A DNA stretch of 64,000 nucleotides, from positions 1,104,180-1,168,179 of the forward strand of contig NC_013204.1 in the NCBI RefSeq assembly GCF_000024265.1, read 5' to 3'. A model generated the notes under the pieces. The model was not told where the DNA came from, ran no database searches, and saw only the letters and a list, made by a program, of their open reading frames with translations. Below, piece after piece: positions 1,684 through 33,341 of the stretch (its first letter is position 1; each line of letters starts with the position of its first letter). This stretch comes from Eggerthella lenta DSM 2243 (lineage in GTDB: Bacteria > Actinomycetota > Coriobacteriia > Coriobacteriales > Eggerthellaceae). The position numbers and the translations under genes are program-made.

Positions 1684-1717
1684 GGGTCGATCCTTTCCCT
1701 CGGGTTTTACTATGTGC

Positions 1718-2914: not shown

Positions 2915-2942
2915 GGGCGTCTCCTCTGGGATGTCAAGCGAA

Positions 2943-2972: not shown

Positions 2973-3000
2973 GGTCGAGGGCTATCTATCGGCCCTGTTC

Positions 3001-9135: not shown

Positions 9136-9138
9136 GGC

Positions 9139-11364: not shown

Positions 11365-11375
11365 GCCGCTCCCCC

Positions 11376-12266: not shown

Positions 12267-12292
12267 GTTCGCTTTCCCTTTCATTCGATGGG

Positions 12293-14092: not shown

Positions 14093-14093
14093 G

Positions 14094-17333: not shown

Positions 17334-17352
17334 GTGGTTTTCTCCGTTTTCT

Positions 17353-17769
17353 CTATGCCTCGGCCTCGGCGTCGGCCTCCAGCGCCGCCGCCTTCTCCGC
17401 TTTGGTCTCCTTCTTGGGCCTCTTGCCGGCTTTCGCCTTGGCGGAGGCGCGGTCGCCGTGCGGCGAGAGCGTCGGCGCGGCGAACAGGGCGACCTTCGGC
17501 CAGTCGCGGTCGGCCTTCCAGATGGCGAACCACTGCTCGAACTTGAGGTCGTGGATGCGCCCGAGGCCGACGAGCCCGATCGCGCCGCAGACGGACATGA
17601 TCAGCATCAGCCACAGCGTGTTGATCTCGGTGAACGACGAGATCGCCAGCCCCATGCCGGCGGCGGTGATCGCGATGGCCGCTCCGGTCGCGACCTGGCG
17701 GTACGTGAAGCCGAACAGCGGCCTGGCCTCGTAGTCCTGGATGTCCTTGCGCAGGATGATCTCTACCAT
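17353..17769 (-). CDS. PrgI-like (VirB3-type) small membrane protein
   Basis: The start is MVEIILRKDIQDYEARPLFG at 17769, whose ATG shares its A with the TGA of the upstream gene (TGATG), indicating translational coupling. The 138-residue protein has two close membrane segments at about 26-70, a typical PrgI-family layout, and a charged Ala/Lys/Glu tail. PrgI/VirB3 proteins sit in the inner membrane and partner the VirB4 ATPase encoded next. The LRKDIxxYExRxxxGFTxRQ opening is characteristic of the family. Confidence 0.85.
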   Translation of the reverse strand: MVEIILRKDIQDYEARPLFGFTYRQVATGAAIAITAAGMGLAISSFTEINTLWLMLIMSVCGAIGLVGLGRIHDLKFEQWFAIWKADRDWPKVALFAAPTLSPHGDRASAKAKAGKRPKKETKAEKAAALEADAEAEA

Positions 17770-18986: not shown

Positions 18987-19007
18987 ATGGAGTTCCCTCC
19001 GTCGTCC

Positions 19008-19223
19008 CTACATCGTGGGGAAGGTGAGGTAGCTGCCGCCGACCAGGCCGATGGCCGCCATGGCGCCGCCGAGGGCGATGACCCAGACCGCGCCCTCCTG
19101 GGCCTGCGCGTCGTGGGCCTTGCCGCCGGAGACCCAGCGGAAGACGCCCACGGCGGCGGTGATTCCGCCGACGAAGGTGAGGATCTGCCACAGATAGTTC
19201 AGGAGCTGGTTGAAGAAAGCCAT
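19008..19223 (-). CDS. VirB2/Maff2-like small channel or pilin subunit
   Basis: This 71-residue protein has two membrane helices (about 8-30 and 46-66) separated by a polar loop, SGGKAHDAQAQEG. This is the usual form of VirB2-like and Maff2-family proteins encoded between the coupling protein and the VirB6 homologue in Gram-positive ICEs. An AAGGGAAAA ribosome site lies just before the ATG. The loop Gly-Gly-Lys followed by Gln residues is typical of that family. Confidence 0.8.
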   Translation of the reverse strand: MAFFNQLLNYLWQILTFVGGITAAVGVFRWVSGGKAHDAQAQEGAVWVIALGGAMAAIGLVGGSYLTFPTM

Positions 19224-19281
19224 ATGGGGTTTTCCCTTCTGATTCGCGGCGCCGCCCGTGTGGCCTTGGCGCCCTGTTTGA

Positions 19282-19332
19282 CCCGCCGCGGCGGGTGAGA
19301 TATGACGACTGGCGGGGTCTCCCCCGCCGGGG
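19282..19332 (-). terminator. Double GC hairpin after coupling-protein gene
   Basis: Directly after the coupling-protein stop, a seven-bp stem GGCGGGG/CCCCGCC with a four-base loop (19311-19328) is followed by a perfect 14-base palindrome, CCCGCCGCGGCGGG (19282-19295). No T-run follows. This is probably an attenuator or mRNA-processing hairpin that separates coupling-protein expression from channel genes. Confidence 0.5.
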
Positions 19333-19337
19333 GCCTC

Positions 19338-21371
19338 CTACATGAAGAACTCGGGGTCGAAGAACGAACGGGCCTCCTCGATGCGCCAGCGCATCTCCTC
19401 GACCTCGGCGCGGTGCGCGCGCTCGCGCTCGCACTTGCGGTCCCAGTTCCAGTCGTCCAGGTTGAACTCGCCGACCTCGCGCAGCTCGTGGTAGCGCGGG
19501 TGGTCGATCGTCCTGTACTTCTTGTCGAGGAACGGGAAGGCGTTCTTCACGAAGACGATGCAGTCGTCGCCGCCGAACTTCTCGGGGTTGTTGCCGAGGT
19601 CGGCGGCGGCCATGAGCTCCTTGCCGATCTTGTTCTCGCTCTCGGACCACGATCCCTGCCGGCCGTGCGACTCGCTGCGGTTGCGGACGGTGGCGGTGAA
19701 CTTGCCCAGGCGCTCGGAGATCTTCTTGTTGGTCTCGAGGTCGCAGCGGCCGAGGAACAGCGTCGTGTCGCAGTTGCCCTCGATGATGTCGGCGTTGTCC
19801 TTGTACATCTTCTTGAGCTGCGTGACCGATTGCAGGATGGCCGTGATGTAGATCCAGCGCGAGCGCAGGGTCGCGATCTTGACGTCGAGGTCGGGGATGC
19901 GGCCGATGTTGGCGAGCTCGTCGAGGATGCAGTTGATCGGGATCTTGCAGTGCGAGCCGGGGTTCCTGTCGGCGATGGCAGTGTTGACGTCGAACAGCTG
20001 GTAGAGCAGCATCGCCAGGATGAAGTTGAACGTCTTGTCGGTGTCGGACATGACCAGGAAGAACGCCGTGCGCTCCTCGCCGATCATCTCGAGCTCCAGC
20101 TCGTCCTCGCTGAAGAACTCGCGGACCGCGGAGACGGCGAACGGCGCCAGGCGGACGTTGCACGACGCGATGACCGAGGCCTCGGTCTCCGGCGATTCGG
20201 AGGTCGACTTGAAGCCCTTGTACTGCTTGATGACGAAGTACTCCTCGGAGGCCTGCGCGGCCGCCTCGTCGCCGCCGTGGTTGGCGACGATCCATTCCTC
20301 GAAGCCCTGGAAGCCGTCCTCGGCGGTCGTGCCGAGCATGATGATGTCCAGCGGGGTCTTGGTCTGGCTGGGGTTGTCCTTGCCGGCGAGCTGGAGCAGG
20401 TCGAGCATCTGCGGGAACGTCTGGTACTGCGGCTGGTCCGCGTAGAAGTAGAAGAGGTAGCCCATCAGCGCCATGTACAGCTGCCTCTCGGCCTTGACGA
20501 AGAAGTCCTCCTTCTCGGCCTCCGCGTTGCCCGACGTGTTCTCCACCAGCAGGTTGACGATCTGCATGATCGACGTGGAGTCCTGGAGGTAGAGCAGCGG
20601 GTTGTAGTGCATCGATTGGTTGATCTGGTCGGGCTTGGTGTTGACAGCCTTGAGCTTGTAGCCGTGGCGCAGGAAGAAGTTGCCGTACTGCTTGAGCGTG
20701 TCGCCCTTGGGGTCGGTCGTCACGATCGAGCTGTTGAGCTGGAGAAGGTTGGGGCCGACGAAGTTGAAGGTCTTGCCCGAGCCGGAGCCGCCGAGCACGT
20801 AGACGTGCTTGTTGCGCTCGAGCGCCGGGTCGGGGATCTTCGACATCTGGAGCTCGGCGCGCTCGGACAGGATGATGTTGTCGTCCTCGATCTTCTCGAC
20901 GTAGTCGGGCTTGGGGTTGGCGACCTTGTTGGTCATGCCGAGCTTGGCCTTGATGAAGTCCTTCGGGTTGTTGCGGGCGAAGCGCATCGCGTCGGCGGTG
21001 CGCTGCGGGATGCGGATGGGCACGCGCTTCACGGTCGAGGTGTGCGCGAACTGCTGCATCTCGTCGTCGCGCGCCCAGCGCTGGTTGCCGTACTCCTCGC
21101 CGCGGAGCTTCTTCTGCTCCTCGCGCTCGCCGGTCCAGTCGTATTTTGTCATGGCCACCAGCGCGATGGCGCCGAAGGCCAGAAAGAAGAACGGCATCGT
21201 GCGGGAGTCGAGGTAGAACGGGTCTTGCAGGATCACGGCCCACTCGGCGACGGTGTGGTTGGAGCCGACGGTGAGCGGGTTGTCGATGAACCATGCGGCG
21301 ATTCGGTTGAACATCCAGCCGCAGAGCGTGCCGCCGAGGATGAGGTACAGAAATCCCTTGAGGGTGCGCAT
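19338..21371 (-). CDS. VirD4/TraG-family type IV coupling protein
   Basis: The 677-residue protein has two N-terminal membrane segments (about 5-25 and 55-72). Walker A is GGSGSGKTFN near residue 190, followed by TTDPKGDTL, the typical second block of TraG/VirD4. Walker B is in CILDELANIG near 480. Coupling proteins bring the relaxase-DNA complex to the channel and pump DNA. It lies downstream of two accessory genes, one PcfB-like, with a three-base gap, and upstream of the VirB2-like gene. Its length is normal for the family. Confidence 0.95.
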   Translation of the reverse strand: MRTLKGFLYLILGGTLCGWMFNRIAAWFIDNPLTVGSNHTVAEWAVILQDPFYLDSRTMPFFFLAFGAIALVAMTKYDWTGEREEQKKLRGEEYGNQRWARDDEMQQFAHTSTVKRVPIRIPQRTADAMRFARNNPKDFIKAKLGMTNKVANPKPDYVEKIEDDNIILSERAELQMSKIPDPALERNKHVYVLGGSGSGKTFNFVGPNLLQLNSSIVTTDPKGDTLKQYGNFFLRHGYKLKAVNTKPDQINQSMHYNPLLYLQDSTSIMQIVNLLVENTSGNAEAEKEDFFVKAERQLYMALMGYLFYFYADQPQYQTFPQMLDLLQLAGKDNPSQTKTPLDIIMLGTTAEDGFQGFEEWIVANHGGDEAAAQASEEYFVIKQYKGFKSTSESPETEASVIASCNVRLAPFAVSAVREFFSEDELELEMIGEERTAFFLVMSDTDKTFNFILAMLLYQLFDVNTAIADRNPGSHCKIPINCILDELANIGRIPDLDVKIATLRSRWIYITAILQSVTQLKKMYKDNADIIEGNCDTTLFLGRCDLETNKKISERLGKFTATVRNRSESHGRQGSWSESENKIGKELMAAADLGNNPEKFGGDDCIVFVKNAFPFLDKKYRTIDHPRYHELREVGEFNLDDWNWDRKCERERAHRAEVEEMRWRIEEARSFFDPEFFM

Positions 21372-21374
21372 GGG

Positions 21375-22115
21375 CTACTCCTCCTCCGCGGTCTCGCCGC
21401 CGTCGGGCGCCGCGGCGCGGTGGTAGTGCTTGCCGCCCTCGGCCTCGTCGCCGTCCTGCCCGCCCGCGGCCTCAGCCATGGGCATCGACAGGGCGAAGAA
21501 CGTCTTGAGGCGCATCGAGGCGCTGTCGAGCACGCGGTCCGCGATGGCCCTCCGCTCGGAGCGGGCGGGCGGGAACATGGCGAGGAACCCGTCGAGCTCG
21601 GCGATGGGGTAGGACCAGCGCGAGGCCGACAATTTCATGTAGTCGTAGTCCATGTTGGCCATGGCGCGGTCGAGGTAGCTTTCCTCGCCGTCTACGAACC
21701 TGTTGCCCTTGATGGCGCTCTCGAGCGCCGCGCATCCGCGCGGGTCGAACGGGGCGGTGCGGGCGCACAGCAGGACCTCGTGGACGTCGAGCGGGTTGAC
21801 GCGGAAGCCGTCATGGCCCTCGCCGCCGTCGCGGATGGATGCGAGCTCGCCGTCGAGCGCGCAGTACCCGATGACGCAGGCGAGCAGCCGGCGCTCCGCC
21901 TGCTCGAGGTATTCCCTCGTGTAGCCGTATTCGCGGGCGGTCTCGGGGTATTCGCTGCGGTAGGCGGACGAGGAGATCGGCGAGTAGTATTCGGGGCTGT
22001 CGCCGAACTCGAGGATGCCGGCGGCGTCGTATCTGAACGTGTCGGAGCTGCCGCGCGCGACGATCTCGTCGGCCATCGTCGCGCACGAGGCGGCCAGGGT
22101 CTCAAGGTCGATCAT
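21375..22115 (-). CDS. Unknown ICE protein between PcfB-like and coupling protein genes
   Basis: The protein has 246 residues with no signal or membrane segment: a mostly helical, acidic product with a Tyr/Ser/Glu-rich stretch at about 40-75 (EYYSPISSSAYRSEY) and a Gly/Asp/Glu-rich tail. The ATG overlaps the stop of the preceding gene by four bases, so it is translationally coupled. No family is recognised. Its place next to the coupling protein suggests a cytoplasmic transfer accessory factor. Confidence 0.65.
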   Translation of the reverse strand: MIDLETLAASCATMADEIVARGSSDTFRYDAAGILEFGDSPEYYSPISSSAYRSEYPETAREYGYTREYLEQAERRLLACVIGYCALDGELASIRDGGEGHDGFRVNPLDVHEVLLCARTAPFDPRGCAALESAIKGNRFVDGEESYLDRAMANMDYDYMKLSASRWSYPIAELDGFLAMFPPARSERRAIADRVLDSASMRLKTFFALSMPMAEAAGGQDGDEAEGGKHYHRAAAPDGGETAEEE

Positions 22116-23179
22116 CGGTGCATCCCCTCGTTGCGTGCGGGCATGGAGGGCTGCATCTTGCTCTCGGCGATCTTCTTGGCCGCCTTCGTCTGTCCGACGG
22201 GGGACTCAGGCGAGGCGGCCCGGGAGTTTCCCAAGGCCTCGCTGAGCAGCGCGGCGTTTTTCTCGGCGGCAGCGGCCTGCTTCGGGTCGATCTTCTTCTT
22301 GTTCTCGGAGATGAAGCAGCCGCGGTCGATGGCGGCCTCGAGCACCATGCCGGGCGCGGCCGCGAACGCGGCCCCCTCGGCCTTCATCTCGTTGTAGAAC
22401 TCCTTGGCTCCGTCCGAGCCGGTCTTCCAGAGCTCGGGTCCCTGGGTGGCGTCGACTTCGGCGCTGGCGACGGGGCGGCCGTTGCGGGTGCATTCGAAGG
22501 AGGCCTTGTTCTCGTCGTCCGGGTCGAGGGTCACGCGGTACTGCTCTCGGGAGTGGCCGCCGGCCGACCCGACCCAGCTGTTGCGGCCGTCGCCGGTGCG
22601 CTCGAACTCCCAGTTGATGCCGTTGCGCTTGAAGGCGCGGGGATAGCGGTTCTGGTCGTCGCGCTCGATGCCGCGCGCGCACTCCTCGAGCTCCTTGCGG
22701 TCCATGCCGAAGGACTCGACGCCGATGTTGATGAGCGCCTGGGTCATGATGTCCATGTCCCGGCCCTGGATGCCGATGGAGACCGCGGGACTTCCGTCCA
22801 TGGGGTTGACGGTGTCGAATACGGAGAACTTCACTCCGTGGTTCATGAGTTCGCGCTTGAGCTTCTGGATGTCCTCGCGATTGTCGGCGACCGCCCCGGG
22901 GAATACCATGGCCTCGCGGTACTGGTCCGGGTTCTGGGCGCGCACGGTCTCGGCGGAGACGATGCCCTTCTCGCCGCGGCCGTCGACCATGTTCGCGGCC
23001 CCGTGCGTGAGGGCGCGGGCGAATCTCGCCGGTATGCGGTCGTTCCTGTTGCCGGCCGCGCGGGCTCGCCGCGCCTGGGCCAGGCCCTCGAGCAGGTACT
23101 TGATGATTTCTGAGGCTGATTGCACGGCTGCCGTGCCGGTCCTGAACGCGAGCTGTACCGCCTCGTCTTCTGCTGCCAT
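22112..23179 (-). CDS. PcfB-like (DUF3801-type) transfer accessory protein
   Basis: The protein has 355 residues. The first 30 residues include SASEIIKYLLEGL, and residues 85-150 contain IQKLKRELMNHGVKFSVFD followed by strand and RDMDIMTQALINIGV. This helix-strand-strand-helix arrangement (nucleic-acid-binding-like, residue-by-residue address of small Lys/Arg helices) is that of PcfB/DUF3801 proteins, which accompany PcfC-type coupling proteins and the relaxase. The C-terminal half is longer than in PcfB and ends in a Lys/Ala-rich tail. It is the first gene of the transfer operon after the promoter at 23,308. The family call is moderate. Confidence 0.65.
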   Translation of the reverse strand: MAAEDEAVQLAFRTGTAAVQSASEIIKYLLEGLAQARRARAAGNRNDRIPARFARALTHGAANMVDGRGEKGIVSAETVRAQNPDQYREAMVFPGAVADNREDIQKLKRELMNHGVKFSVFDTVNPMDGSPAVSIGIQGRDMDIMTQALINIGVESFGMDRKELEECARGIERDDQNRYPRAFKRNGINWEFERTGDGRNSWVGSAGGHSREQYRVTLDPDDENKASFECTRNGRPVASAEVDATQGPELWKTGSDGAKEFYNEMKAEGAAFAAAPGMVLEAAIDRGCFISENKKKIDPKQAAAAEKNAALLSEALGNSRAASPESPVGQTKAAKKIAESKMQPSMPARNEGMHR

Positions 23180-23226
23180 TTCTTCTGACCCCTTCTGTAG
23201 AGCAGGTGTGGATATGGGCCTGCTGG

Positions 23227-23313
23227 GGTCAGGTGGCGTGGCCGGGGTCGGCGGAAGGTCAGGTGGTGAGGTCGATGCAGTCGGCAGGCCGGACCATCGA
23301 CGGTGGCATTATA
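23227..23313 (-). promoter_or_regulatory. Transfer operon promoter and repeated leader
   Basis: On the minus strand a perfect TATAAT lies at 23313-23308, with a poor -35 box, about 130 bp ahead of the PcfB-like start. The leader contains GGTCAGGTGG twice, at 23257-23266 and 23227-23236, exactly 30 bp apart, in G-rich sequence. The weak -35 suggests that an activator is needed, and the two decamers are candidate regulator sites. Confidence 0.5.
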
Positions 23314-23330
23314 ACCAATTGTCTGAGTTT

Positions 23331-23561
23331 CTATTCAGTCGATTTCCGCCTGTTCGGGATGCAGGCGGGATCGACCCCGACGAGCCTGGCGACGGAGTCG
23401 CGCGTTATCTTGCGGTGCCCCCGCTCGGGGGTCCATTGCCTGAGGTCCCCCGACTTGACGAACCTCTTGACGGTCGACGCGCTGACGCCCAGGAAGGCGC
23501 ACGTCTCCTTGACGGTCAGGAACCTCGGCAGAGCCGCCAGGTCCTCGATGACTGAGCTCAT
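23331..23561 (-). CDS. Excisionase-like HTH (MerR/HTH_17 type) protein
   Basis: This 76-residue protein has a winged-HTH core: LTVKETCAFLGVSASTVKRF, then KSGDLRQWTPERGHRKITRDSV. This is the typical helix-turn-helix plus wing of HTH_17 excisionase and AlpA-like proteins. The start overlaps the preceding small gene by four bases. In an ICE such a protein usually bends DNA to favour excision or acts as a transcription activator. The transfer operon promoter lies just downstream. Confidence 0.8.
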   Translation of the reverse strand: MSSVIEDLAALPRFLTVKETCAFLGVSASTVKRFVKSGDLRQWTPERGHRKITRDSVARLVGVDPACIPNRRKSTE

Positions 23562-23797
23562 TGGTCCTCCTCGGCGTCCATGACGGCGGACAGCGGCAGC
23601 TCCGCGTAGAGGCAGAGCTGGACGATCTCGAGCCCGTCGAGGGCCGCCGCGGCGCGCGACGCCGTGGAGAGCCCGAGCAGCCTCAGGACCTTGGGCAGCG
23701 GTATCCCCGTGCCGCGGACGATGTCGAGCGCCGTGGCGCCGGTCTCCCTGAGCGCCGCGGCGAGCGCGTCCATGTGTATGCCGTCTTGTCTGTTCAT
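23558..23797 (-). CDS. Small helical HTH-like protein
   Basis: The 79-residue protein is almost wholly helical. The stretch TALDIVRGTGIPLPKVLRLLGLST can form an HTH-like pair. The start at 23797 has GGAAGG eight bases upstream; an alternative is the ATG at 23773. It is divergent from the XRE gene across a 156-bp region full of inverted repeats, and it overlaps the excisionase-like gene. This is probably the first gene of the ICE early regulatory operon. No named family. Confidence 0.6.
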   Translation of the reverse strand: MNRQDGIHMDALAAALRETGATALDIVRGTGIPLPKVLRLLGLSTASRAAAALDGLEIVQLCLYAELPLSAVMDAEEDQ

Positions 23798-23807
23798 GTC
23801 GGAAGCC

Positions 23808-23882
23808 TTCCCGTTCCGTGTTCCGATACCGAAAGTATCCGGGTCGTTACGACCCCCGACGGGAACAGTATAGGAACGGGGA
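23808..23882. promoter_or_regulatory. Divergent control region with nested inverted repeats
   Basis: CCCGTTCC (23810-23817) pairs with GGAACGGG (23873-23880), and GTTCC (23820-23824) with GGAAC (23862-23866). GATAC-CGAAA-GTATC and the perfect GGGTCGTTACGACCC lie inside. The region separates the two divergently transcribed regulator genes, as expected for operators of the XRE protein encoded to its right. Confidence 0.6.
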
Positions 23883-23953
23883 GATGGCGCGCGGTGCGAT
23901 ACTTGCCCGCACGGGGTAGAAAGGCCCCGCGCGTTTCGACACGGAAGGAAGTG

Positions 23954-24322
23954 ATGCGTTCGATGAGGTCGAGGGTTCCGGAGAAGTCCGAGCTGGCGGC
24001 GCAGCTCAAGCGCTACCGCTACGATGCGGGGCTGAAGGGCGATGAGGCGGGAGCGGTCATCGGCAAGAAGGCCACGACGGTGTACAAGTACGAGGCCGGG
24101 ACCCTGTGGGTGTCGCCGGGGGACCTGCGGGCGCTGCTCAACGAGTACGGCGTGAACATGGTCACGGCCTTCACCGAGGTCGGCGACCCGAGGGCGGGCG
24201 GCAGGAAGAAGGACGAGTCGGCCCTGCGCTGGCGCAAGATGCGCGCCTACTACGACATGATGGGCCCGGCCAAGCAGAGGACCCTGCTCGACGTCGCGAG
24301 GGCGATGGCCGAGGACTTCTGA
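23954..24322 (+). CDS. XRE-family transcriptional regulator
   Basis: The open frame begins far upstream, but the ATG at 23954 follows GGAAGGAAG and matches where homology-like sequence begins (a second ATG at 23963 is possible). The 122-residue protein has an HTH at about 15-65: LAAQLKRYRYDAGLKGDEAG, VIGKKATTVYKYEAG. It is the only plus-strand gene in the ICE portion. Divergence from the HTH pair across repeated dyads suggests that it represses the excision and transfer genes. Confidence 0.8.
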   Translation: MRSMRSRVPEKSELAAQLKRYRYDAGLKGDEAGAVIGKKATTVYKYEAGTLWVSPGDLRALLNEYGVNMVTAFTEVGDPRAGGRKKDESALRWRKMRAYYDMMGPAKQRTLLDVARAMAEDF

Positions 24323-24325
24323 GCC

Positions 24326-24395
24326 GTGCGCGTGCGCACATCAGCACACCGGCATATATGCGCATGCGCATATATCTATAGCTGCGCATCTGCGC
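24326..24395. repeat. Left copy of GCGCA palindrome cluster
   Basis: This stretch contains GTGCGCGTGCGCAC (24326-24339), a perfect 22-bp palindrome with ATATAT ends and a GCGCATGCGC centre (24354-24375), and GCGCATCTGCGC (24384-24395). GCATATATGCGCA (24352-24364) and TGCGCATCTGC (24383-24393) recur in the same order and nearly the same spacing at 25317-25356. It lies between convergent genes. Confidence 0.8.
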
Positions 24396-24398
24396 GAA

Positions 24399-25142
24399 TC
24401 AGCCCTTGCGCGGGAGCGCGCGGGCGCACGACGGCGCCTCCGCCTGCACAGGCTCGTCCTCGGCGATGGACGGCGCCCTCATGGCATGGGCGTCGGTGTC
24501 GATCCAATGCTCCCCGGTCTCGGGGTCGTCGCGCTCGGCGAAGCGGTGGGCGGCATGCCCGACGTCCTCGAACGGGCTGCGGGTGCTGACGAGGTAACGG
24601 CGGCGCGCCTGGGTGCCTATATGCCCCATGGGCGACTCGATGTCGAACCAGGGCTGGAACATCTTCGGCATCGTGACGCAGCACACGTTGTCCTGCGGGT
24701 CGTAGAGGTGGAGCCGGCCGTCCTGCCCGAGCGCGACGGAATATCCCTCGGGCACGGCGACGTAGTTCACGACGCTGCAGTGCGTGCGCGACGTGTCGAC
24801 CTCGTCCATGGTGTAGCCGAGCTGGTGGGGCGGGATGAACGCGTTGTACGTGACGTATTCGGGGTGCTCGCGGATCTGCTCGGGCGTGAAGCACATCTCG
24901 ACGGCGCCGGGCACGTCGACGTCGCCCGTCATGTAGAAGGTGTCGTAGAGCGTGCCGACTACGGCGATCTCCGCGGTGTAGCCCTCCTCGACCACATGGG
25001 TCGAGGCCTCGTGTGCGTTGTAGAGGTCCGACCAGCGCCTCATGAGGTCGCTGGACTTGACGAGCTCGGGGTCGAAGTACCTGTCCCCGGGGCGGTAGAT
25101 CTCCTCGTCGGGGATGTCGCGCTTCGATTTGAAAAGGCCCAT
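24399..25142 (-). CDS. Unknown cytoplasmic protein in a repeat-flanked cassette
   Basis: The start is MGLFKSKRDIPDEEIYRPGD at 25142, with AAGGAG seven bases upstream; longer frames lack a ribosome site. The 247-residue protein has no signal or membrane segments and is rich in Asp, Glu, Tyr and His. It contains repeated mixed-strand patterns (VVNYVAVPEGYSVALGQDG, LHLYDPQDNVCCVTMP) suggesting a beta-rich fold. No family is recognised. It lies between two copies of a short palindromic repeat cluster and next to the integrase, so it may be a cargo gene that can move as a unit. Confidence 0.6.
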   Translation of the reverse strand: MGLFKSKRDIPDEEIYRPGDRYFDPELVKSSDLMRRWSDLYNAHEASTHVVEEGYTAEIAVVGTLYDTFYMTGDVDVPGAVEMCFTPEQIREHPEYVTYNAFIPPHQLGYTMDEVDTSRTHCSVVNYVAVPEGYSVALGQDGRLHLYDPQDNVCCVTMPKMFQPWFDIESPMGHIGTQARRRYLVSTRSPFEDVGHAAHRFAERDDPETGEHWIDTDAHAMRAPSIAEDEPVQAEAPSCARALPRKG

Positions 25143-25257
25143 GGTGGTCGCTCCTTGGATGATGGCGCGGCGGTATGCCGCGGCCTGCCGATTATCCGCC
25201 CGCGCCGCGCCGTGCGCAATGCGGCCTTCCCGCACGGGAAGCCGGGCGCGGTTCAGG

Positions 25258-25360
25258 TTCATATATACATATATACCCGAACGCGTACATGCGCATACGC
25301 GCATTTTCTCATTTACGCATATATGCGCAGACGCGGGAACGCGCCTGCGCATCTGCCCGC
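25258..25360. repeat. Right copy of GCGCA palindrome cluster next to integrase
   Basis: This non-coding stretch lies between the cargo gene promoter and the integrase stop. It has alternating ATATATACATATATAC, ACATGCGCATACGCGCAT, the perfect CGCATATATGCG (25316-25327), and TGCGCATCTGC (25346-25356). GCATATATGCGCA (25317-25329) and TGCGCATCTGC match the left cluster about 964 bp away. Candidate integrase arm sites, att region or recombination borders. Confidence 0.75.
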
Positions 25361-25368
25361 GCCACGGC

Positions 25369-26685
25369 CTAGCCGCACGCGAGCGATTCCCAGGAGATGA
25401 TCTTCACCGTCCGCATCGCCTCGGCATCGGGCAGGGGCTCTTCTTCCGGCTCCTTCTTTTCCTGACCCCGGATGCGCGCCGGCAGCTCGGAGCCCTGCCC
25501 GTCGTAGCCTTCCGGCAGCGCCATGACCTCGTTGACGGCGTCGACGCTCGCGCGCAGGTTCTCCGGGCTGGAGCTCACGTAGATCCTCAGCGTGAAGGAG
25601 GGGTCCGTGTGCCCGAGCCAGTTGGACACGGTCTTCGGGTTGACCCCGGACATGATGAGCTCGGTGGCGAAGGTGTGCCGCAGGCGGTGCAGGCCGCACT
25701 TCCCGCCGCCTATGCCGAACGTCCGGACGAACGTCCTGAACAGCTGGTTGGCGTATCTCGGCACCATGAACGCGCCGTCGATGTCGCCGACGACGAAGAT
25801 GTCGTCCGTGAACGGGACGCCGGCGTCGCGGCAGCGGGCCTCCTGCTCCGCCCGTCGGCGCTCCAGCCCCTCCATGAGCCCGTCCGCGATGGGCAGCGCC
25901 CTCACGCCGGCCGGGCTCTTCGGCCCCTTGAGGTAGCCGTTGGAGGAGGGCAGGGTGCCGATGGCGCTGGTGATGCGCACCGTGCGGCGGTTGAGATCGA
26001 CGTTCGCCCAGCGCAGGGCGCAGATCTCCCCGCATCTGAGGCCCGCGAACAGGGCGAGCCGCACTATCGCGTCGAGCGGGCCGCGGATGCACGGGAGGGC
26101 GGCGAGCAGCGCGTTCTTCTCTTCGGCGGAGAGCGCGCGGGGGAGCGGGCGGTCGTGCTTGGGCGCGCGGATCCTGCGCAGGTCGAGCGGGGGCCGGAGC
26201 ATTCGGAAGCTGGCGAGCTCTAGGGTGTCCCTGACCGTCCAGAGCATATGGTTCACGGTCTCGGAGCAGTACCCGTCCTCGACGAGCGAGTCGACGTAGA
26301 GCTGCACGTCCTGGGCGGTGACCCTGTCCACGGGAATCTCCCCCAGGTCGCCCAGGAGCCTGACGTGGCGGCAATAGCCGGCATGCGTCGACTTCTCGAT
26401 GGCGCCGACGGCGAGCGCATGGTCGATGTCGTCCCGCCTGAGCTCGCCGACCGTGGGCATGCGGCCCTCCGTCGCCTCGATGGCTTCGGCCCGCCGCTCG
26501 TCTTCCGGGTCGCGGGGGAGGTTGTAGAGGTATTCGGCCGCTAGGTGCTCGGCTTCCGCGCGGCTCGCCGCCGCCCCGATCGTGGCCCACTTGCGATCGC
26601 CCTTGCGCTCGGCATCGTAGACCGCGCGGTAGCTCATCCTCCATGAACCGCCGCGGCGGGCGAGGGAGACCCTTTCGTAATGCAT
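25369..26685 (-). CDS. Tyrosine recombinase (ICE integrase)
   Basis: This is a 438-residue integrase, taking the ATG at 26685 (a TTG at 26694 is possible). The N-terminal 60 residues form an AP2-like strand-rich arm-binding region (MSYRAVYDAERKGDRKW); the core-binding domain spans about 75-185. Catalytic residues are Arg in LFAGLRCGEICALRW, Lys in LKGPKSPAGVR, His-x-x-Arg in LHRLRHTFAT, His in WLGHTDPS and the nucleophile Tyr in TLRIYV. The catalytic set is complete. The gene starts within six bases of the stop of a truncated recombinase gene. It should catalyse integration and excision of the ICE. Confidence 0.93.
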   Translation of the reverse strand: MHYERVSLARRGGSWRMSYRAVYDAERKGDRKWATIGAAASRAEAEHLAAEYLYNLPRDPEDERRAEAIEATEGRMPTVGELRRDDIDHALAVGAIEKSTHAGYCRHVRLLGDLGEIPVDRVTAQDVQLYVDSLVEDGYCSETVNHMLWTVRDTLELASFRMLRPPLDLRRIRAPKHDRPLPRALSAEEKNALLAALPCIRGPLDAIVRLALFAGLRCGEICALRWANVDLNRRTVRITSAIGTLPSSNGYLKGPKSPAGVRALPIADGLMEGLERRRAEQEARCRDAGVPFTDDIFVVGDIDGAFMVPRYANQLFRTFVRTFGIGGGKCGLHRLRHTFATELIMSGVNPKTVSNWLGHTDPSFTLRIYVSSSPENLRASVDAVNEVMALPEGYDGQGSELPARIRGQEKKEPEEEPLPDAEAMRTVKIISWESLACG

Positions 26686-26690
26686 ATTCC

Positions 26691-27602
26691 TCAATCCTCC
26701 CCTTCATCATGGGCGAGCCTGAGCCCGTAGAGCGTGCATCCGGCGCCAACGATGCGCAGCAGCTCGTTCGCGTCGCTCCTGAGGTGTTCCACGTCGCGGC
26801 GGCGGCCGTTCTTCTCGAGCAGCAGCCTGGATCCGGCCGAGGCGGCCCAGGAGCGCGGCGCGTCGCCGAGCCATGCCGGCAGCCGCGTCACGGAGGGCTC
26901 GGGATATGCGACGAAGAAGTTCGGCTCGCCGATGCTCTCCCGCCAGATCCCGCGGACGGTGACGGTCATGCGCTCCGCATCGAGGTCGTCGGCGAGTATC
27001 CCGCAGATCTCGCCGGGCTTGAGGCCGCATCCGAGGGCGAGGCCGATGGCCGCGGCGGAATGCCCCGATCCGCATGCGGCGAGGGCCCGCGCGGCCTTGA
27101 GGCCCGCCGGGGGGATCGGGCGCTTCTTCCTGGGCGGCCGGGGAACGTCGAACGGGACCTCGGAGAACGGGTTGGAGGCGCACAGCCCTTCGGCGAGCGC
27201 ATGTCTGCCCGCGGCGGCGCAGATGGTCTTGAGCCGGTAGCAGCGCACGCGCGAGACGCCGCGGGACTCGGCCGACTCGAGCGCGGCCGCCGCCGCGGCG
27301 GGGCTTATCGAGTCGACGGCGCAGCCCGCTATCGCCCCGAGGGCCCTGCATTCCTTTCGATAGTTCGCGACGGTTTTCCTGGCGGCCCCCTTGGCCGTCA
27401 GGATCTCGAAGTAGCGGTCCAGCGCCTCGGCGAGCGTGCACGCCTTCGGCCCCGGCAGGGACGCGAGCGCCGCGGCGCGCGCCCCGTCCGCGCTTTCCGC
27501 CCGGAACCTCCTTCGCAGCCTCTTGCGCGACGCGTCGATGATGTCAACCTCCCACACGCCGCATCTGAGCTCCCTGACCGATCTTATCCTTGATTCCGGC
27601 AA
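26691..27602 (-). CDS. Degenerate tyrosine recombinase lacking the catalytic C-terminus
   Basis: The best start is the TTG at 27602, which follows GGGAGG by seven bases; the GTG at 27710 has no ribosome site. The product has 303 residues. It has an arm domain (about 1-45), a core-binding domain (about 55-150) and the beginning of a catalytic fold. The first Arg block reads GCGLKPGEICGIL, with Lys in place of Arg, and the HxxR block is replaced by LYGLRLAHDE, right at the C-terminus. There is no Tyr nucleophile. The frame is clean and has a ribosome site, so this looks like a maintained accessory DNA-binding protein rather than recent decay. It overlaps the integrase leader and is probably co-translated with it. 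Confidence 0.75.
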   Translation of the reverse strand: MPESRIRSVRELRCGVWEVDIIDASRKRLRRRFRAESADGARAAALASLPGPKACTLAEALDRYFEILTAKGAARKTVANYRKECRALGAIAGCAVDSISPAAAAAALESAESRGVSRVRCYRLKTICAAAGRHALAEGLCASNPFSEVPFDVPRPPRKKRPIPPAGLKAARALAACGSGHSAAAIGLALGCGLKPGEICGILADDLDAERMTVTVRGIWRESIGEPNFFVAYPEPSVTRLPAWLGDAPRSWAASAGSRLLLEKNGRRRDVEHLRSDANELLRIVGAGCTLYGLRLAHDEGED

Positions 27603-27734
27603 CGTGCCGCCTCCCTTCGCATGATGTGGAAACGTGCCTCCCGGATGGCTCGAGATGGCTCCGGGGGCGGTTATTTCGATGGAGACAGGGTAATTCGACC
27701 TATCGCCCACATGAACGGCAATTTATGCTTCTAG
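27603..27734. other. Probable ICE end / junction with type III R-M locus
   Basis: This 132-bp non-coding strip lies between the start of the recombinase gene (minus) and the truncated methyltransferase (plus). It holds CCCGGATGGCTCGAGATGGC, with ATGGCTC repeated, in a CCCGGA/TCCGGG inverted repeat. It includes the point where mod homology is lost (an in-frame stop at 27732). Likely contains the ICE attachment junction; the exact crossover cannot be fixed from one end. Confidence 0.5.
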
Positions 27735-28016
27735 CAGCGCAGATGTCGGAATGTGTTTGATGATTTGATACGGGATGGTGACGAGATGACCGGAAATGGA
27801 ACCGCAGGACGTCAGCAGGTGTTCTTTGTTGACGGCGACAAATTGGCGGCCTGCTTCGATGCGAACGTTGGCTCCGACACCATCGAGGAGATGGCGAAGG
27901 CCAAGCCCTGGTACGCCGTCATCCGCGACTCGTCCATGGCTGACGACGCCACACACGCCAACTACGAGGAGCTTTTCCGCACCTACAGCCCCGACACCGT
28001 TCCCCAAGTGATTTAA
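27735..28016 (+). pseudogene. 3' remnant of type III DNA methyltransferase (Mod)
   Basis: The open frame (longest GTG-initiated part from 27753) encodes FDDLIRDGDEMTGNG, then RQQVFFVDGDKLAACFDANV, then WYAVIRDSSMADDA and EELFRTYSPDTVPQVI. This is the conserved C-terminal end of type III Mod subunits. All methylation motifs (FxGxG and DPPY) are absent, and an in-frame stop lies just upstream at 27732. Res follows 9 bp later, so this was the mod-res operon. Mod gives target recognition and protection. Its loss next to the ICE end suggests insertional truncation. Confidence 0.85.
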
Positions 28017-28025
28017 GGCGTCGAC

Positions 28026-31000
28026 ATGAAGTTCAAGTTCAAAGTACAACGGTACCAAACCGACGCCGCAGATGCGGTGACCTCGGTCTTCGAGGGGCAG
28101 CCCAACCAGGGCGCCTCCGTCTACCTGCGCGATCTGGGCCGCAAGCCCAAGTGTGCGCAGGGCGAGATCGACTTCGGCGACGAGAGCACCGAGGGCTATG
28201 CCAATGCGCCCGTCGCGCTTTCGGGCGCTGACATACTGGCAAACGTGCGAGCGGTGCAGCGACGCAACCAGATCCCCGAGTCGGAGGAGCTTTTCTGCAG
28301 TATGGGAGCCTGCCAGCTGGACGTCGAGATGGAGACGGGCACCGGCAAGACATACGTCTACACCAAGACGATGCTCGAGCTCAACCGCCTGTACGGCTGG
28401 TGCAAGTTCATCGTGGTGGTGCCATCGGTCGCCATCCGCGAGGGTGTGGCCAAGAGCCTGGAGAACACCCAGGAGCACTTCTTCTCCCAATACCACAAGA
28501 AGATCAGGTTCTTCATATACGACTCGGACAACCTGACCGAACTGGATGCGTATTCCCAGTCGAGCGACGTCAACTGCATGGTCATCAACATGCAGGCGTT
28601 CAACGCGTCGATGAAGGAGGGCGCCAAGAACAAGGCGGCGCGCATCATCTTCGACGAGCGCGACGAGTTCAGCAGCCGTAGGCCCATCGACGTCATAGCG
28701 GCGAACCGCCCCATTGTCATCTGCGATGAGCCCCAGAAGATGGGAAAGAAGGGGGGCGCGACCCAGAAGGGCATCGCCCGCTTCAACCCGCTGTTCGTGC
28801 TGAACTACTCGGCAACTCACAAGGAGAAGCACGACCTGGTGTATGCCTTGGACGCCTTGGACGCCTACAACCAGAAACTCGTCAAGCGCATCGAGGTGAA
28901 GGGCTTCGCCCTAAAGAACATGCGCGGAACCGACGGCTACCTGTACCTGCGCGACATCGTGGTATCCAAGAATCGCGCCCCCGAGGCCGTTATCGAGTTC
29001 AAGTGCATGGGGTCTGGCGGCAAGGTGCGCAAGAAGACCGCACGCTTTGGCGAGGGCGACAGCATCTACGGCGCCAGCGGTTCGACGAAGCTCGAAGCGT
29101 ACCGCGGCTACACCATCGCGAGCGGCAACGACGGCGTGGTCCCGCCCCAGGATGGGCGCCCAGGCTACGTGCGCTTCCTGGACGGCTCTATCGGGGACGA
29201 CGGGCGCGTCTACATCGGCGAGGTCTACGGCGACTCCGCCGCCGACGACATGCAGCGCATACAGATTCGCGAGACGATCCTGAGCCACTTGCAAAAGGAG
29301 GAGGCGCTTTTCCGCCGCGGCATCAAGTGCCTGAGTCTTTTCTTCATCGACCAGGTAGCGAAGTACCGCGACCTCTCCGGAAACGGCGAAACAGTGGGCT
29401 ACGGTAAGATCTTCGAGGAGGAGTACGAGGCCATCGTCTCCGACAGGCTGGAGCACCCGACGCAGGATGACATCCTCGACCCCTCGTATGCGGAGTACCT
29501 CGGGCGATTCGAGGCATGCTCAGTGCACTCCGGATACTTCTCGGTGGACAAGAAGGGCAACGCCGTCGAGTCGAAGGCCGAGAGGAAGGCGGAGCGCGAT
29601 GACGGCATCGGCATCAACGACGACGACGCGAAACGCGGCTACGACCTGATCCTGCGCGATAAGGAGCGCCTGCTTTCGTTCGATGAGCCGGTGCGCTTCA
29701 TCTTCAGCCACTCGGCGCTGCGCGAGGGCTGGGACAACCCGAACATCTTCCAGATCTGCACACTCAAAGAATCCGGCTCTGAGACGAGCAAGCGCCAGGA
29801 GGTCGGCCGCGGCATGCGCTTGGCGGTCGATCAAGACGGCAACCGCCAGGACGCGGCGCTGCTGGGACCCGACGAGGTGCACCGCGTGAACTTGCTCACC
29901 GTGATCGCGTCGGAGAGCTACGAGACGTTCGTGAGGGATTTGCAGACAGATATAAGCAAGAGCCTGCGCGATCGTCCGAAGAAGGTGGAGATGGACCTGT
30001 TCAGCGGTCGCGACGTCGTGCTCGACGGCGAGACGGTCTCCTTCACCGAGGACGAGTCGAGGCGCGTATACAAAACCCTCTACAAGTGCGACCTCATCGA
30101 TGACGACGACAAGCCGACCGCCGAGTTCCGCAAGGCCGTGGAGGACGGCACCTTCGTGGAGTACTTCGTCGCGAAGCTGCCCGAGGAAATCGCCGACGCT
30201 GCCCACGCCAAGGCGGTCGAGGCGCTGGTGAAGAGCGTCTACGACGCGCACGCGCTCGACGGCATGATCGGGCGCGCCCAGGAGAAGATCTCCGAGAACA
30301 CGCTGACCGACAACTTCGCAAGACGCGAGTTCAAGGAACTGTGGGCGCGCATCAACCGAAAGCACGCCTACACGGTGAGCTTCTCGGACGACGAGTTGAG
30401 GCGCAAGTCGATAGAGCGTATCAACTGTGACCTGCGCGTGAGCAGGCTGCAGTACACCTTGACGGTCGGCGGGCAAAAGTCACGGGCAACGCGCGACGAG
30501 GTGCAGGGCGGCTCGTCGTTCGGCCGCACGCAGACCGAGACTCGCAACGTCGACGCCGGAACCGCGTCCGTGGGCGTGACCTACGACCTCGTGGGCGAGG
30601 TGGCGCAGGCCGCTGCTATCACGCGCAGGAGCGCCGCGGCGATTCTCGCCGGCATCGATGCCAACGTGTTCGGGCTCTACCGCGTGAATCCCGAGGAGTT
30701 CATCAAGAAGACGGCGGCGCTCATCGTGTCGGAGAAGGCGACGATGGTGGTGGAGCACATCAGCTACCACGAGATCGACGACGTCTACGATGAGGCTATC
30801 TTCACTGAGCGCATGCCCGACAACGCGAGCAAGGCGTACGAGGCCAAGAAGAACATCCAGCGCTTCGTGTTTCCCGACTCCGACGGCGAGCGCAGGTTCG
30901 CTGAGGACATGGACGCCGCCGCCGAGGTAGCGGTCTATGCCAAGCTGCCGCGCACGTTCCAGATTCCCACGCCGGTGGGCAACTACGCCCCAGACTGGGC

Positions 31001-31208
31001 CATCGCCTTCAAGGAAGGCAGCGTGCGCCATGTGTTCTTCGTCGCCGAGACCAAGGGCACCGTGGACACGCTGGAGCTCTCCGGTGTGGAGAACGCCAAG
31101 ATCGCCTGCGCCAAGAAGCTTTTCAACGAGATGAGCACGGGCGACGTGCGCTACCACAACGTGGCGACGTACGAGGACCTGCTCGAGGTGATGGGCAGGA
31201 TGGGCTAG
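28026..31208 (+). CDS. Type III restriction enzyme Res subunit
   Basis: This 1060-residue protein is of normal Res length. Superfamily 2 helicase motifs: Walker A in METGTGKTYVYTKT near 103, DEPQ in VICDEPQKMG near 235, and motif VI in RQEVGRGMRLAV near 592. The C-terminal endonuclease has PDWAIAF near 988 and AETKG near 1007, a PD-(D/E)XK-type site. Res translocates along DNA and cuts when complexed with Mod at two head-to-head sites. Reading frame and motifs look intact. Without an intact Mod in the window it should be inactive unless Mod is provided elsewhere. Confidence 0.95.
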   Translation: MKFKFKVQRYQTDAADAVTSVFEGQPNQGASVYLRDLGRKPKCAQGEIDFGDESTEGYANAPVALSGADILANVRAVQRRNQIPESEELFCSMGACQLDVEMETGTGKTYVYTKTMLELNRLYGWCKFIVVVPSVAIREGVAKSLENTQEHFFSQYHKKIRFFIYDSDNLTELDAYSQSSDVNCMVINMQAFNASMKEGAKNKAARIIFDERDEFSSRRPIDVIAANRPIVICDEPQKMGKKGGATQKGIARFNPLFVLNYSATHKEKHDLVYALDALDAYNQKLVKRIEVKGFALKNMRGTDGYLYLRDIVVSKNRAPEAVIEFKCMGSGGKVRKKTARFGEGDSIYGASGSTKLEAYRGYTIASGNDGVVPPQDGRPGYVRFLDGSIGDDGRVYIGEVYGDSAADDMQRIQIRETILSHLQKEEALFRRGIKCLSLFFIDQVAKYRDLSGNGETVGYGKIFEEEYEAIVSDRLEHPTQDDILDPSYAEYLGRFEACSVHSGYFSVDKKGNAVESKAERKAERDDGIGINDDDAKRGYDLILRDKERLLSFDEPVRFIFSHSALREGWDNPNIFQICTLKESGSETSKRQEVGRGMRLAVDQDGNRQDAALLGPDEVHRVNLLTVIASESYETFVRDLQTDISKSLRDRPKKVEMDLFSGRDVVLDGETVSFTEDESRRVYKTLYKCDLIDDDDKPTAEFRKAVEDGTFVEYFVAKLPEEIADAAHAKAVEALVKSVYDAHALDGMIGRAQEKISENTLTDNFARREFKELWARINRKHAYTVSFSDDELRRKSIERINCDLRVSRLQYTLTVGGQKSRATRDEVQGGSSFGRTQTETRNVDAGTASVGVTYDLVGEVAQAAAITRRSAAAILAGIDANVFGLYRVNPEEFIKKTAALIVSEKATMVVEHISYHEIDDVYDEAIFTERMPDNASKAYEAKKNIQRFVFPDSDGERRFAEDMDAAAEVAVYAKLPRTFQIPTPVGNYAPDWAIAFKEGSVRHVFFVAETKGTVDTLELSGVENAKIACAKKLFNEMSTGDVRYHNVATYEDLLEVMGRMG

Positions 31209-31217
31209 GCCACGCTT

Positions 31218-32351
31218 ATGAGCCATAAGGAAAACCAGGAAAAGGCCGAGCTTTCGATTTATGAGCAATCGCTGAAAGTCGCGAGGGCAAAAGGCGGAGA
31301 AGCTAGAAGGAACGTCGCCCGACTGTCGGGCGACGCCCGCCCATTCGATAGACCCGATATCCTCATCGCAGCAGAAGACGGAAGAAGAATAGTCGGCTTA
31401 GAGCACTTTCGTGTTGACCACCATATCGGGAGGGGCAAGAAGGCTGAATCCAAGTCCGCGAGGTTCTCTTCGGATGCAGAGCGCTTTCGAAAGCAACACG
31501 AGGATGCAGCTTGTAGGGGCGCTTTGGCAGAAGAGGCTTACCGAGGGTTCGGTGATTTGATTAGCCGGGCGATACGGGAGCAATCGAACGCCTGCGTTGA
31601 CGACATCAGCACTTCGCTTGACGCTGGGCTGTTCGGCAGGGACGGTCGCGGGCATGCGTTCAAGCTCGATGCGTATCGCGAGAACATAACGCAGAGTGAC
31701 GCCAATGCCGATATCCAGCTTGGGTTCCTGATTGAGCTCCATACGGATTTGCGCCAATGGTTCCTCAATGATGGATTTAAGGAGACCAGGGTATCTCCAG
31801 GTCAGTTTCCGATAAGTTGCGAAGCCTATGAGCTTCTTAGGAAAGCATCGGCTCACGTTGATTGGATCGTGCTTGCGTTTTGCCCGCTTTACAGCGATGA
31901 GGTGAGAGACGCCGCGATTATCAGATGCCGCAACGGCATGTTCGAAACGAGCGCCGCTCGACAAGGCATAATCCAGACGCCATATTTAGGCCTTGGAAAA
32001 GAAGCGCCTTTCGGCAAGCAGGATAGACAAGGAGAGGTTGAGTTCGGTGTCGGAAACGACGGCGTTGATTATCTGGTCGAAAACACGTCCGGGCAGATGG
32101 ACCCCATCGAGTTGTTCAACAACGCGATAAGCGGAGCCGCCGAAGCATTCAATCTGGCGCGGAAGGGAAAACCCTTTGCTGCGACGACGTCCGTTCAGCT
32201 TGCCTACGACATAGCAAAAGATTCCTTGAAGCACAAAAACGGGAATGTTGGGCCGCAGGATGTCCTTAAGTCGATTGGCGGAATGGATCCATCAGAGAAG
32301 ACCGCGCGGATGCGGAATTGGAGAAAGCGCTGGCCCGCCGATAGCGTATAG
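31218..32351 (+). CDS. Unknown protein in R-M operon, possible nuclease fold
   Basis: This 377-residue protein starts 9 bp after Res, probably in the same transcript. No membrane segment. Near residue 45 the block RPDILIAAEDGRRIVGLEHF resembles the PD...E-x-K layout of restriction-type nucleases, but with His where Lys is expected, so catalysis is uncertain. The middle has a mostly helical region and a strand-rich part (HVDWIVLAFCPLY). Base composition is more A+T-rich than that of res, a sign of separate origin. Its position between res and a DUF4268-like gene suggests a defence-island accessory gene. Confidence 0.6.
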   Translation: MSHKENQEKAELSIYEQSLKVARAKGGEARRNVARLSGDARPFDRPDILIAAEDGRRIVGLEHFRVDHHIGRGKKAESKSARFSSDAERFRKQHEDAACRGALAEEAYRGFGDLISRAIREQSNACVDDISTSLDAGLFGRDGRGHAFKLDAYRENITQSDANADIQLGFLIELHTDLRQWFLNDGFKETRVSPGQFPISCEAYELLRKASAHVDWIVLAFCPLYSDEVRDAAIIRCRNGMFETSAARQGIIQTPYLGLGKEAPFGKQDRQGEVEFGVGNDGVDYLVENTSGQMDPIELFNNAISGAAEAFNLARKGKPFAATTSVQLAYDIAKDSLKHKNGNVGPQDVLKSIGGMDPSEKTARMRNWRKRWPADSV

Positions 32352-32411
32352 CTTAGCTTTCGATTGACGCGGACGAAGCGCTCTGCGCGCCAGCGATTTG
32401 AAAGGAATGCG

Positions 32412-33341
32412 ATGAAATACAACCTCGACAAGCTCAAGAAGGTCGAGCTGCGCGACGTGTGGCTGCACGAGGCGCTCGATTTCACCAGGTGGCTCTCCGA
32501 GGAGCCCAATCTTGCCATATTGAGCTCCGCAGTCGGCATTGAGCTCGAGCTCATAGAGACCGAGTCGTCGGTGGGTTCGTTCAATGTCGATATCTATGCG
32601 CGGGAAGCCGGCACCGGACGCAAGGTGATCATCGAGAACCAGCTCGAGGACACCAACCACGACCACCTGGGCAAAGTAATCACCTACGCCGCCGGTAAGG
32701 GCGCCGAGGTCGTCGTGTGGGTGGTGGCACGCGCCCGTGACGAGCATCGTCAGGCCATCGAGTGGCTCAACCAGCACACCGACAGCGATTTCGGGTTCTT
32801 TCTGGTGGAGATAGAGCTGTGGTCCATCGGGGACTCACTGCCCGCCCCGCGCTTCAACGTTGTCGAGCAGCCGAACGAGTGGACGAAGGCCATCAAGCTC
32901 AGCGAGGGCCTCTCCGAGACCGAGCGCGTCAAGCTATCGTACTGGACCAAGTATCGCGAGGTGGCCCAGGCGTCACCTGATTTTTTGAAGGCGTTCAACT
33001 CGCAGAAGCCCTCGAAGGACCACTGGACCACGTTGCGCTGCGGCACGTCCGCCTATCACATCGCGCTGCTTATAGACACGCAACACGGCAGAATCGGCAT
33101 CGAGTTCTACGCGCCCAACGACAAGGAGATCGGCCACAAGGCCATAGACAACGCCGATTTGTTTGAAGAACGTCTCGGCCTTGCGGCCACGCCCTTCGAC
33201 GCCAAGAAGGCATCGGGGCTTCGCTTCTACAAAGACGGCTGCAAGATCAAGAACAACGAGGCCGCCTGGCCGAGATTTATATCAGAGCAGCTCAAATGGG
33301 CTATCGTTATGAAGCAAGTAATCGGCGAACTTGAGCTCTAG
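32412..33341 (+). CDS. DUF4268-like protein with PD-(D/E)XK-type N-terminal domain
   Basis: The start is ATG 32412 (MKYNLDKLKKVELRDVWLHE) after AAAGGAA; the frame before it lacks a ribosome site. The product has 309 residues. The N-terminal 120 residues carry VGSFNVDIYAREAGTGRKVI, then IENQLEDTNHDHLGKVITYA, the D...(E)xQ nuclease-like pattern seen in this family (a core Asp and Glu-x-Gln). Residues 195-309 match the DUF4268 arrangement (PSKDHWTTLRCG, IGIEFYAPNDKE). Such proteins are common next to restriction systems. A DNA-related nuclease or binding role is probable; the exact activity is unknown. Confidence 0.75.
   Translation: MKYNLDKLKKVELRDVWLHEALDFTRWLSEEPNLAILSSAVGIELELIETESSVGSFNVDIYAREAGTGRKVIIENQLEDTNHDHLGKVITYAAGKGAEVVVWVVARARDEHRQAIEWLNQHTDSDFGFFLVEIELWSIGDSLPAPRFNVVEQPNEWTKAIKLSEGLSETERVKLSYWTKYREVAQASPDFLKAFNSQKPSKDHWTTLRCGTSAYHIALLIDTQHGRIGIEFYAPNDKEIGHKAIDNADLFEERLGLAATPFDAKKASGLRFYKDGCKIKNNEAAWPRFISEQLKWAIVMKQVIGELEL

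What the first reader, a model, noticed from the sequence alone, without database searches (positions are those of the whole stretch)
27603..31208. ICE end abuts a type III mod gene cut to its last ~90 codons, with res intact
Seen: the plus frame ends with a clear Mod C-terminus, but an in-frame stop at 27732 and all the methyltransferase motifs are missing, while the minus-strand recombinase gene of the ICE starts at 27602. Res is full length. Inference: the ICE inserted into mod of an older R-M island. If so, excision of the ICE would rebuild mod and switch restriction back on, making restriction dependent on ICE state.
Basis: partly seen in the sequence, partly recalled or inferred. Interest (0 to 1): 0.72.

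Follow-up and report, generated by a model that had tools for sequence, protein, structure and literature searches.

The report
Mobile element splits restriction-system methylase gene
A 129-kb self-transferring DNA element has inserted cleanly into the methylase gene of a bacterial restriction system, so the gene lies in two halves 129 kb apart that would rejoin in frame if the element left; similar insertions of mobile elements into such genes are already known in streptococci.

Summary
The finding is confirmed and completed. The window lies in a complete 3,632,260-bp chromosome (very likely Eggerthella lenta DSM 2243). The missing 5' part of mod, with the methyltransferase motifs, lies 129 kb upstream (C1:1001192-1002872). 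Six uninterrupted homologous islands show that the two halves meet with no base lost: a clean ICE insertion. The true junction is window 27816/27817, so the mod remnant is 66 codons, not ~90. The ICE ends, a Tn1549-like tyrosine recombinase and a 6-bp crossover that differs between attL and attR indicate Tn916-type insertion; both possible excision products read in frame. The left half keeps methylase and recognition regions, loses half of the C-terminal region that contacts Res in EcoP15I, and is followed by a terminator inside the ICE. I therefore predict methylation without restriction (M+ R-) in the inserted state. mod is not a dedicated site: relatives of the ICE split the Wadjet gene jetD in Gordonibacter pamelaeae and sit at the 5' end of yacP in Gordonibacter sp. 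28C. Excision and switching of restriction are not shown. Closest precedents: ICEs in hsdM/MTase genes of streptococci. New member of a known kind; moderate interest.

The parts
27817..28016 (+). 3' remnant of mod: last 66 codons plus stop (chromosomal)
   Evidence: Matches intact mod of six other genomes from this point on
27817..27822 (+). 6-bp crossover at attR (AGGTGT), in the register of native mod; at attL (C1:1002873-1002878, outside the window) it is GTTTCC
   Evidence: Alignment of both ends with intact mod genes; the length 5-7 bp is not fixed exactly by sequence
1..27816 (.). Right-hand part of the 129-kb ICE (whole element C1:1002873-1131995, about 129,123 bp)
   Evidence: Right-end DNA shared with two Gordonibacter copies up to 27816; left end C1:1002879 shared with G. 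pamelaeae; collinear ICE in G. pamelaeae
27786..28016 (+). 76-aa open frame with an ATG supplied by the ICE end (MTGNGTAGRQQ-VFFVDGDK...PQVI); the same ATG is fused in frame to yacP in Gordonibacter sp. 28C
   Evidence: expression not tested
26691..27602 (-). intA: integrase-like protein, 303 aa, TTG start, ends before the catalytic His/Tyr region
   Evidence: Matches lambda Int and Tn1549 Int N-terminal and central parts; no Pfam hit; same length and end in Gordonibacter sp. 28C
25369..26694 (-). intB: complete tyrosine recombinase, overlaps the end of intA by 4 bp
   Evidence: Pfam Phage_integrase 3e-21; best solved relative Tn1549 Int, 6emy
23331..23561 (-). xis-like excisionase, 76 aa
   Evidence: NCBIfam TIGR01764, 5.7e-9, above cut-off
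19338..21371 (-). VirD4-type coupling protein of the ICE
   Evidence: Pfam T4SS-DNA_transf 5.7e-49
14094..17333 (-). TraG-type P-loop ATPase (VirB4-like) of the ICE
   Evidence: Pfam P-loop_TraG 6e-11
28026..31208 (+). res, type III restriction subunit, intact, 1060 aa, 95-96% aa identity to six other islands
31218..32351 (+). 377-aa protein of the island, no family
   Evidence: Conserved after res in the intact islands; no Pfam or PADLOC hit
32364..33341 (+). DUF4268 protein (PADLOC PDC-S11), last gene of the island
   Evidence: island homology stops about here in three genomes

Best explanation
A 129-kb ICE inserted by a Tn916-type crossover into codon 561 of a type III mod gene that belonged to a helicase-DUF4391-(OLD)-mod-res-377aa-DUF4268 island. 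Shown by sequence: the two mod parts meet without loss, the ICE ends are defined, and genes for recombination, excision and conjugation are present. Inferred: in the inserted state the island makes Mod-deltaC (560 native residues plus 26 ICE-coded ones) and transcription stops at a terminator about 50 bp inside the ICE. Mod-deltaC keeps the N-terminal, methylase and target-recognition regions but lacks half of the C-terminal region that docks Res, so the cell is expected to methylate (perhaps weakly) but not to restrict; res is intact but cut off from its operon. Excision by IntB (with IntA and Xis) would rejoin mod in frame, with either native KVF or SFL at the seam, and restore the operon. 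The site was taken by loose sequence preference of the integrase, so this is a passive, reversible knock-out and not an evolved switch.
For: 5' mod part found 129 kb upstream on the same strand; no base lost against six intact mods; ICE ends single-copy and shared with relatives in other sites; collinear ICE in G. pamelaeae; Tn1549-like IntB, excisionase, relaxase, VirD4, TraG ATPase; both excision products open; terminator in the left end; left part matches the PADLOC type III methylase model 3-562 of 621; EcoP15I: methylase domain ends at 516, C-terminal domain 539-644 contacts Res (PMC4490356); other insertion sites in yacP and jetD.
Against: No excision, methylation or restriction data. 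Mod-deltaC could be unstable or inactive, because the cut lies inside a folded domain. The structure model was too poor to judge. No E. lenta strain without the ICE was available.
Confidence: 0.68

Rival explanations
1. One-way knock-out: the ICE no longer excises at a useful rate in this strain, and mod-res is on its way to becoming a relic.
For: No evidence of excision is available; the ICE is large; mod is the poorest match of the three sites to the ICE arm (7 of 13).
Against: intA, intB, xis and the ends are intact; neither mod part nor res shows decay.
Confidence: 0.22
2. Evolved switch: the ICE uses mod as its regular site, and excision under stress re-arms restriction, like active lysogeny at comK.
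For: Frame restored on excision; the two other sites are also non-destructive or in a defence gene.
Against: Relatives insert elsewhere; E. lenta's own yacP is free; six intact mods of the same family carry no ICE; restoration of frame follows automatically from this mode of insertion.
Confidence: 0.05
3. Split Mod: Mod-deltaC and the 76-aa peptide started from the ICE-borne ATG assemble in trans, so that the R-M system still works with the ICE inside.
For: The ICE end supplies an in-frame ATG before the mod remnant and the remnant is free of stops; the remnant keeps 98% aa identity.
Against: No promoter-like site at the ICE right end; the remnant may simply be a recent insertion; the cut is inside a domain.
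Confidence: 0.03
4. The two mod parts are unrelated fragments or an assembly or rearrangement artefact.
For: The assembly was not checked with reads.
Against: Exact complementarity against six intact genes, same strand, with ICE ends between them that also bound the ICE in other genomes.
Confidence: 0.02

Closest known systems
Tn1806-type streptococcal ICEs in hsdM, snf2 and MTase genes (PMC4701971, PMC12942858)
   Same: ICE interrupts the methylase gene of an R-M system; restoration by excision has been proposed there.
   Different: Triple serine integrases and recurrent use of methylase genes there; here a Tn1549-like tyrosine recombinase, a type III mod, and a break beyond the catalytic region in a non-dedicated site.
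Tn916/Tn1549 conjugative transposons (PMC5871717)
   Same: Tyrosine recombinase related to Tn1549 Int, short inverted end arms, 5-7 bp crossover that differs at the two ends, no loss of target, low specificity.
   Different: Much larger element (129 kb), target preference not AT-rich but like the ICE's own left arm, extra integrase-like IntA.
EcoP15I type III R-M (PMC4490356)
   Same: Mod and Res of the same families; order of motifs with TRD between them.
   Different: Here Mod is cut in its C-terminal region by an ICE and Res is detached.
Active lysogeny, e.g. the comK prophage of Listeria (cited in PMC4701971)
   Same: Gene split by a mobile element that could be rejoined by excision.
   Different: Dedicated site and shown regulation there; neither here.

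Membership tests
Type III restriction-modification system | mod with N6-adenine methylase motifs, TRD between motif blocks, next to res | tested here: met
   PADLOC MTase_III 4e-181 and REase_III 9e-265; adjacent in six intact islands; in this genome split by the ICE
Type III restriction-modification system | Full-length Mod able to recruit Res | tested here: not met
   In the inserted state Mod ends after 560 native residues and 66 C-terminal residues are separate
Type III restriction-modification system | Restriction and methylation activity | not testable with these tools
   Needs methylome and phage or plasmid assays
ICE | Recombinase, relaxase, coupling protein and type IV secretion genes between defined ends | tested here: met
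ICE | Excises as a circle and transfers | not testable with these tools
   No reads or matings; presence in two Gordonibacter genomes at other sites argues for past transfer
Tn916/Tn1549-type insertion | Target neither duplicated nor deleted, with a short crossover that differs at the two ends | tested here: met
   GTTTCC at attL, AGGTGT at attR, mod contiguous in six relatives
Tn916/Tn1549-type insertion | Recombinase of the Tn916/Tn1549 Int type | tested here: inconclusive
   Best PDB sequence match is Tn1549 Int at 1e-14, but XerA/XerC models also match; no tree was built
Active lysogeny (regulated gene restoration by excision) | Rejoined gene open after excision | tested here: met
   In silico only, both crossovers
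Active lysogeny (regulated gene restoration by excision) | Conserved, dedicated insertion site in that gene | tested here: not met
   mod, jetD and yacP in three genomes
Active lysogeny (regulated gene restoration by excision) | Excision regulated by condition and reversible | not testable with these tools
   Needs experiment

The most novel reading that the evidence does not exclude
An ICE that tends to insert into genes against incoming DNA, leaving a type III system as a methylation-only half that keeps the chromosome protected while the ICE resides, so that restriction can be re-armed safely by excision because the genome is already methylated.
Probability: 0.07. Interest if true: 0.8.

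Novelty: new member of a known kind. Interest (0 to 1): 0.45.

Why it matters
It gives a concrete, easily tested case of a restriction system whose state may follow a mobile element: the junctions, both possible rejoined genes and the predicted half-active (M+ R-) state are stated. It also delimits a 129-kb ICE family of gut Eggerthellaceae, its loose target preference, and the fact that in two of three known cases it breaks a system against incoming DNA. If E. lenta DSM 2243 lacks this restriction activity because of the ICE, that bears on how easily the type strain takes up DNA.

Tried and rejected
Assembly artefact or unrelated fragments: rejected by the exact join against six intact genes. 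Dedicated mod attachment site: rejected by relatives in jetD and yacP. More ICE insertions: none in plasmids, phages or viral contigs; two in genome contigs, the same two as in the family search. Left end of the 28C ICE: not found by DNA, pattern or yacP-upstream search. AlphaFold model of Mod: mean pLDDT 38.6, not used. Promoter at the ICE right end: none found. E. lenta strains without the ICE: none held; literature searches found no paper on this ICE.

Full report
OBSERVATION. In the window the plus frame upstream of res has an in-frame stop at 27732 and ends in a Mod C-terminus; no methylase domain is found in it. Its last 65 residues are 98% identical to the C-termini of full-length Mods in other Coriobacteriia. 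Res (28026-31208) is complete by Pfam and PADLOC. The minus-strand integrase-like gene does start at 27602.

THE OTHER HALF. The window lies at C1:1104180-1168179 of a single-contig genome of 3,632,260 bp; that length is, from my own knowledge, that of Eggerthella lenta DSM 2243. The only type III mod 5' part found in the genome lies at C1:1001192-1002872, same strand, 129 kb upstream. It has the DPPY and DFFAGSS motifs and matches the PADLOC type III methylase model over positions 3-562 of 621. The genome holds one res of this kind. Upstream lie an SNF2 helicase, a DUF4391 gene and an OLD-like ATPase-TOPRIM gene.

EMPTY SITES. Six other genomes, of other genera, carry the same island with intact mod of 639-680 aa. 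The helicase-DUF4391 part on the left matches five of them at 92-96% and one at 85%; the right flank matches all six at 92-95%. Inside mod the middle (target recognition region) differs between genomes, while both ends are conserved. Homology on the left ends at genome 1002872 and on the right resumes at the next reference base or the one after (window 27817-27818), so no mod base was lost. Window 27603-27816 is ICE DNA: it is nearly identical to DNA beside the same recombinase in Gordonibacter, where other genes follow it. The remnant is therefore 66 codons.

ICE ENDS AND MODE OF INSERTION. The right end (...GGAAATGGAACCGCAGGACGTCAGC) and the left end (TGCTGTTCGATGGCTGCAATTATCG...) occur once each in this genome. 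Between left flank and left end stands GTTTCC; at the right stands AGGTGT, in the register of native mod. A crossover that differs at the two ends, without loss or duplication of target, is the mark of Tn916/Tn1549, whose excision intermediates carry a 5-7 nt heteroduplex (PMC5871717). The complete recombinase, IntB, is closest among solved structures to Tn1549 Int. An excisionase, a relaxase, VirD4, a TraG-type ATPase and a topoisomerase complete an ICE. G. pamelaeae 7-10-1-b carries a collinear ICE over nearly the whole length, in two pieces that its assembly places apart and inverted.

IN-SILICO EXCISION. Joining the flanks with either crossover gives an open mod frame..LAGRKVFFVDGDK.. (as in relatives) or ..LAGRSFLFVDGDK... 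Because this mode of insertion neither adds nor removes bases, restoration of the frame is expected wherever the ICE sits and is not by itself evidence for a switch.

OTHER SITES OF THE SAME ICE. In Gordonibacter sp. 28C the right end adjoins codon 7/8 of yacP (NYN-domain gene); the ICE supplies an in-frame ATG and ten codons in place of the native start, as seen against MPKQRKK in a relative. In G. pamelaeae the right end adjoins the 5' part of jetD (PADLOC JetD, model positions 4-342 of 391, next to jetC), and the left end adjoins a frame that reads like a JetD C-terminus and joins it in frame; this 3' piece was recognised by eye, not by a profile. The 13 bases to the right of the crossover resemble the ICE left arm in all three sites (10, 8 and 7 of 13 for yacP, jetD and mod; combined chance about 1e-5, with the register fixed by the ICE ends but the comparison chosen after seeing the data). 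So the enzyme seems to have a loose preference, and mod is the poorest of the three. E. lenta's own yacP is intact and free. Two of three sites are in genes against incoming DNA; with three cases that may be chance.

WHAT THE INSERTED STATE PROBABLY DOES. Mod-deltaC has 560 native residues plus 26 from the ICE; its last codons run through a terminator-like hairpin about 50 bp inside the ICE (AAACCCCCTGTTCAGGGGGTTTTTT). In EcoP15I the methylase domain ends at residue 516, and the C-terminal domain, 539-644, of one Mod makes extensive contacts with Res (PMC4490356). The break falls after residue 581 of 647 in the closest homologue, inside the C-terminal region and beyond methylase and TRD. I infer that Mod-deltaC may still methylate but cannot recruit Res, and that res is cut off from its operon; no promoter-like site was found at the ICE right end, by a scan that covers only the sigma-70 consensus. 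If so, excision would turn on restriction in an already methylated genome. This paragraph is inference from sequence and from the EcoP15I structure; the structure prediction of Mod failed.

COMPARISON WITH WHAT IS KNOWN. ICEs in methylase genes of R-M systems are known: Tn1806-type ICEs with three serine integrases insert in hsdM, snf2 and MTase genes of streptococci, and restoration by excision was suggested (PMC4701971; PMC12942858). The present case differs in recombinase class, in the type of R-M system and in leaving the catalytic region whole, but it is the same kind of thing. I found no paper on this ICE in the library.

VERDICT. The functional inference (restriction dependent on ICE state) is plausible and unproven, and probably not an evolved regulation.

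Noticed in passing
L006:4485-6179 (C1:999484-1001178): An OLD-like ATPase-TOPRIM gene stands between DUF4391 and mod only in this genome; in the six other islands these two genes are about 20 bp apart.
   Followed up: partly
window 26691-27602 (-): IntA, an integrase-like protein without the catalytic tyrosine, overlaps the start of the complete recombinase IntB and is conserved at full length in Gordonibacter sp. 28C. Its role is unknown.
   Followed up: partly
L083-L088, mod genes: The Mods of otherwise 92-96% identical islands differ completely in the target recognition region: the island seems to swap specificity by exchange of that region.
   Followed up: no
L007:4055-10888 (C1:1014055-1020888): The ICE itself carries a pPIWI_RE three-gene defence island.
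   Followed up: no
L051 5090-5640 (reverse strand): In Gordonibacter sp. 28C the ICE end replaces the first codons of yacP with its own in-frame ATG and ten codons.
   Followed up: partly
L100:2450-3514 and L105 up to 5095: In G. pamelaeae 7-10-1-b the same ICE splits the Wadjet gene jetD.
   Followed up: partly
window 34205-37868 (-): Directly right of the island lie relaxase-, Mob-, ParB- and ParA-like genes of what seems a second mobile element, so the island may itself ride on one.
   Followed up: no
window 3001-8667 (-): 1888-aa surface protein with at least six SpaA prealbumin-like repeats on the ICE.
   Followed up: no
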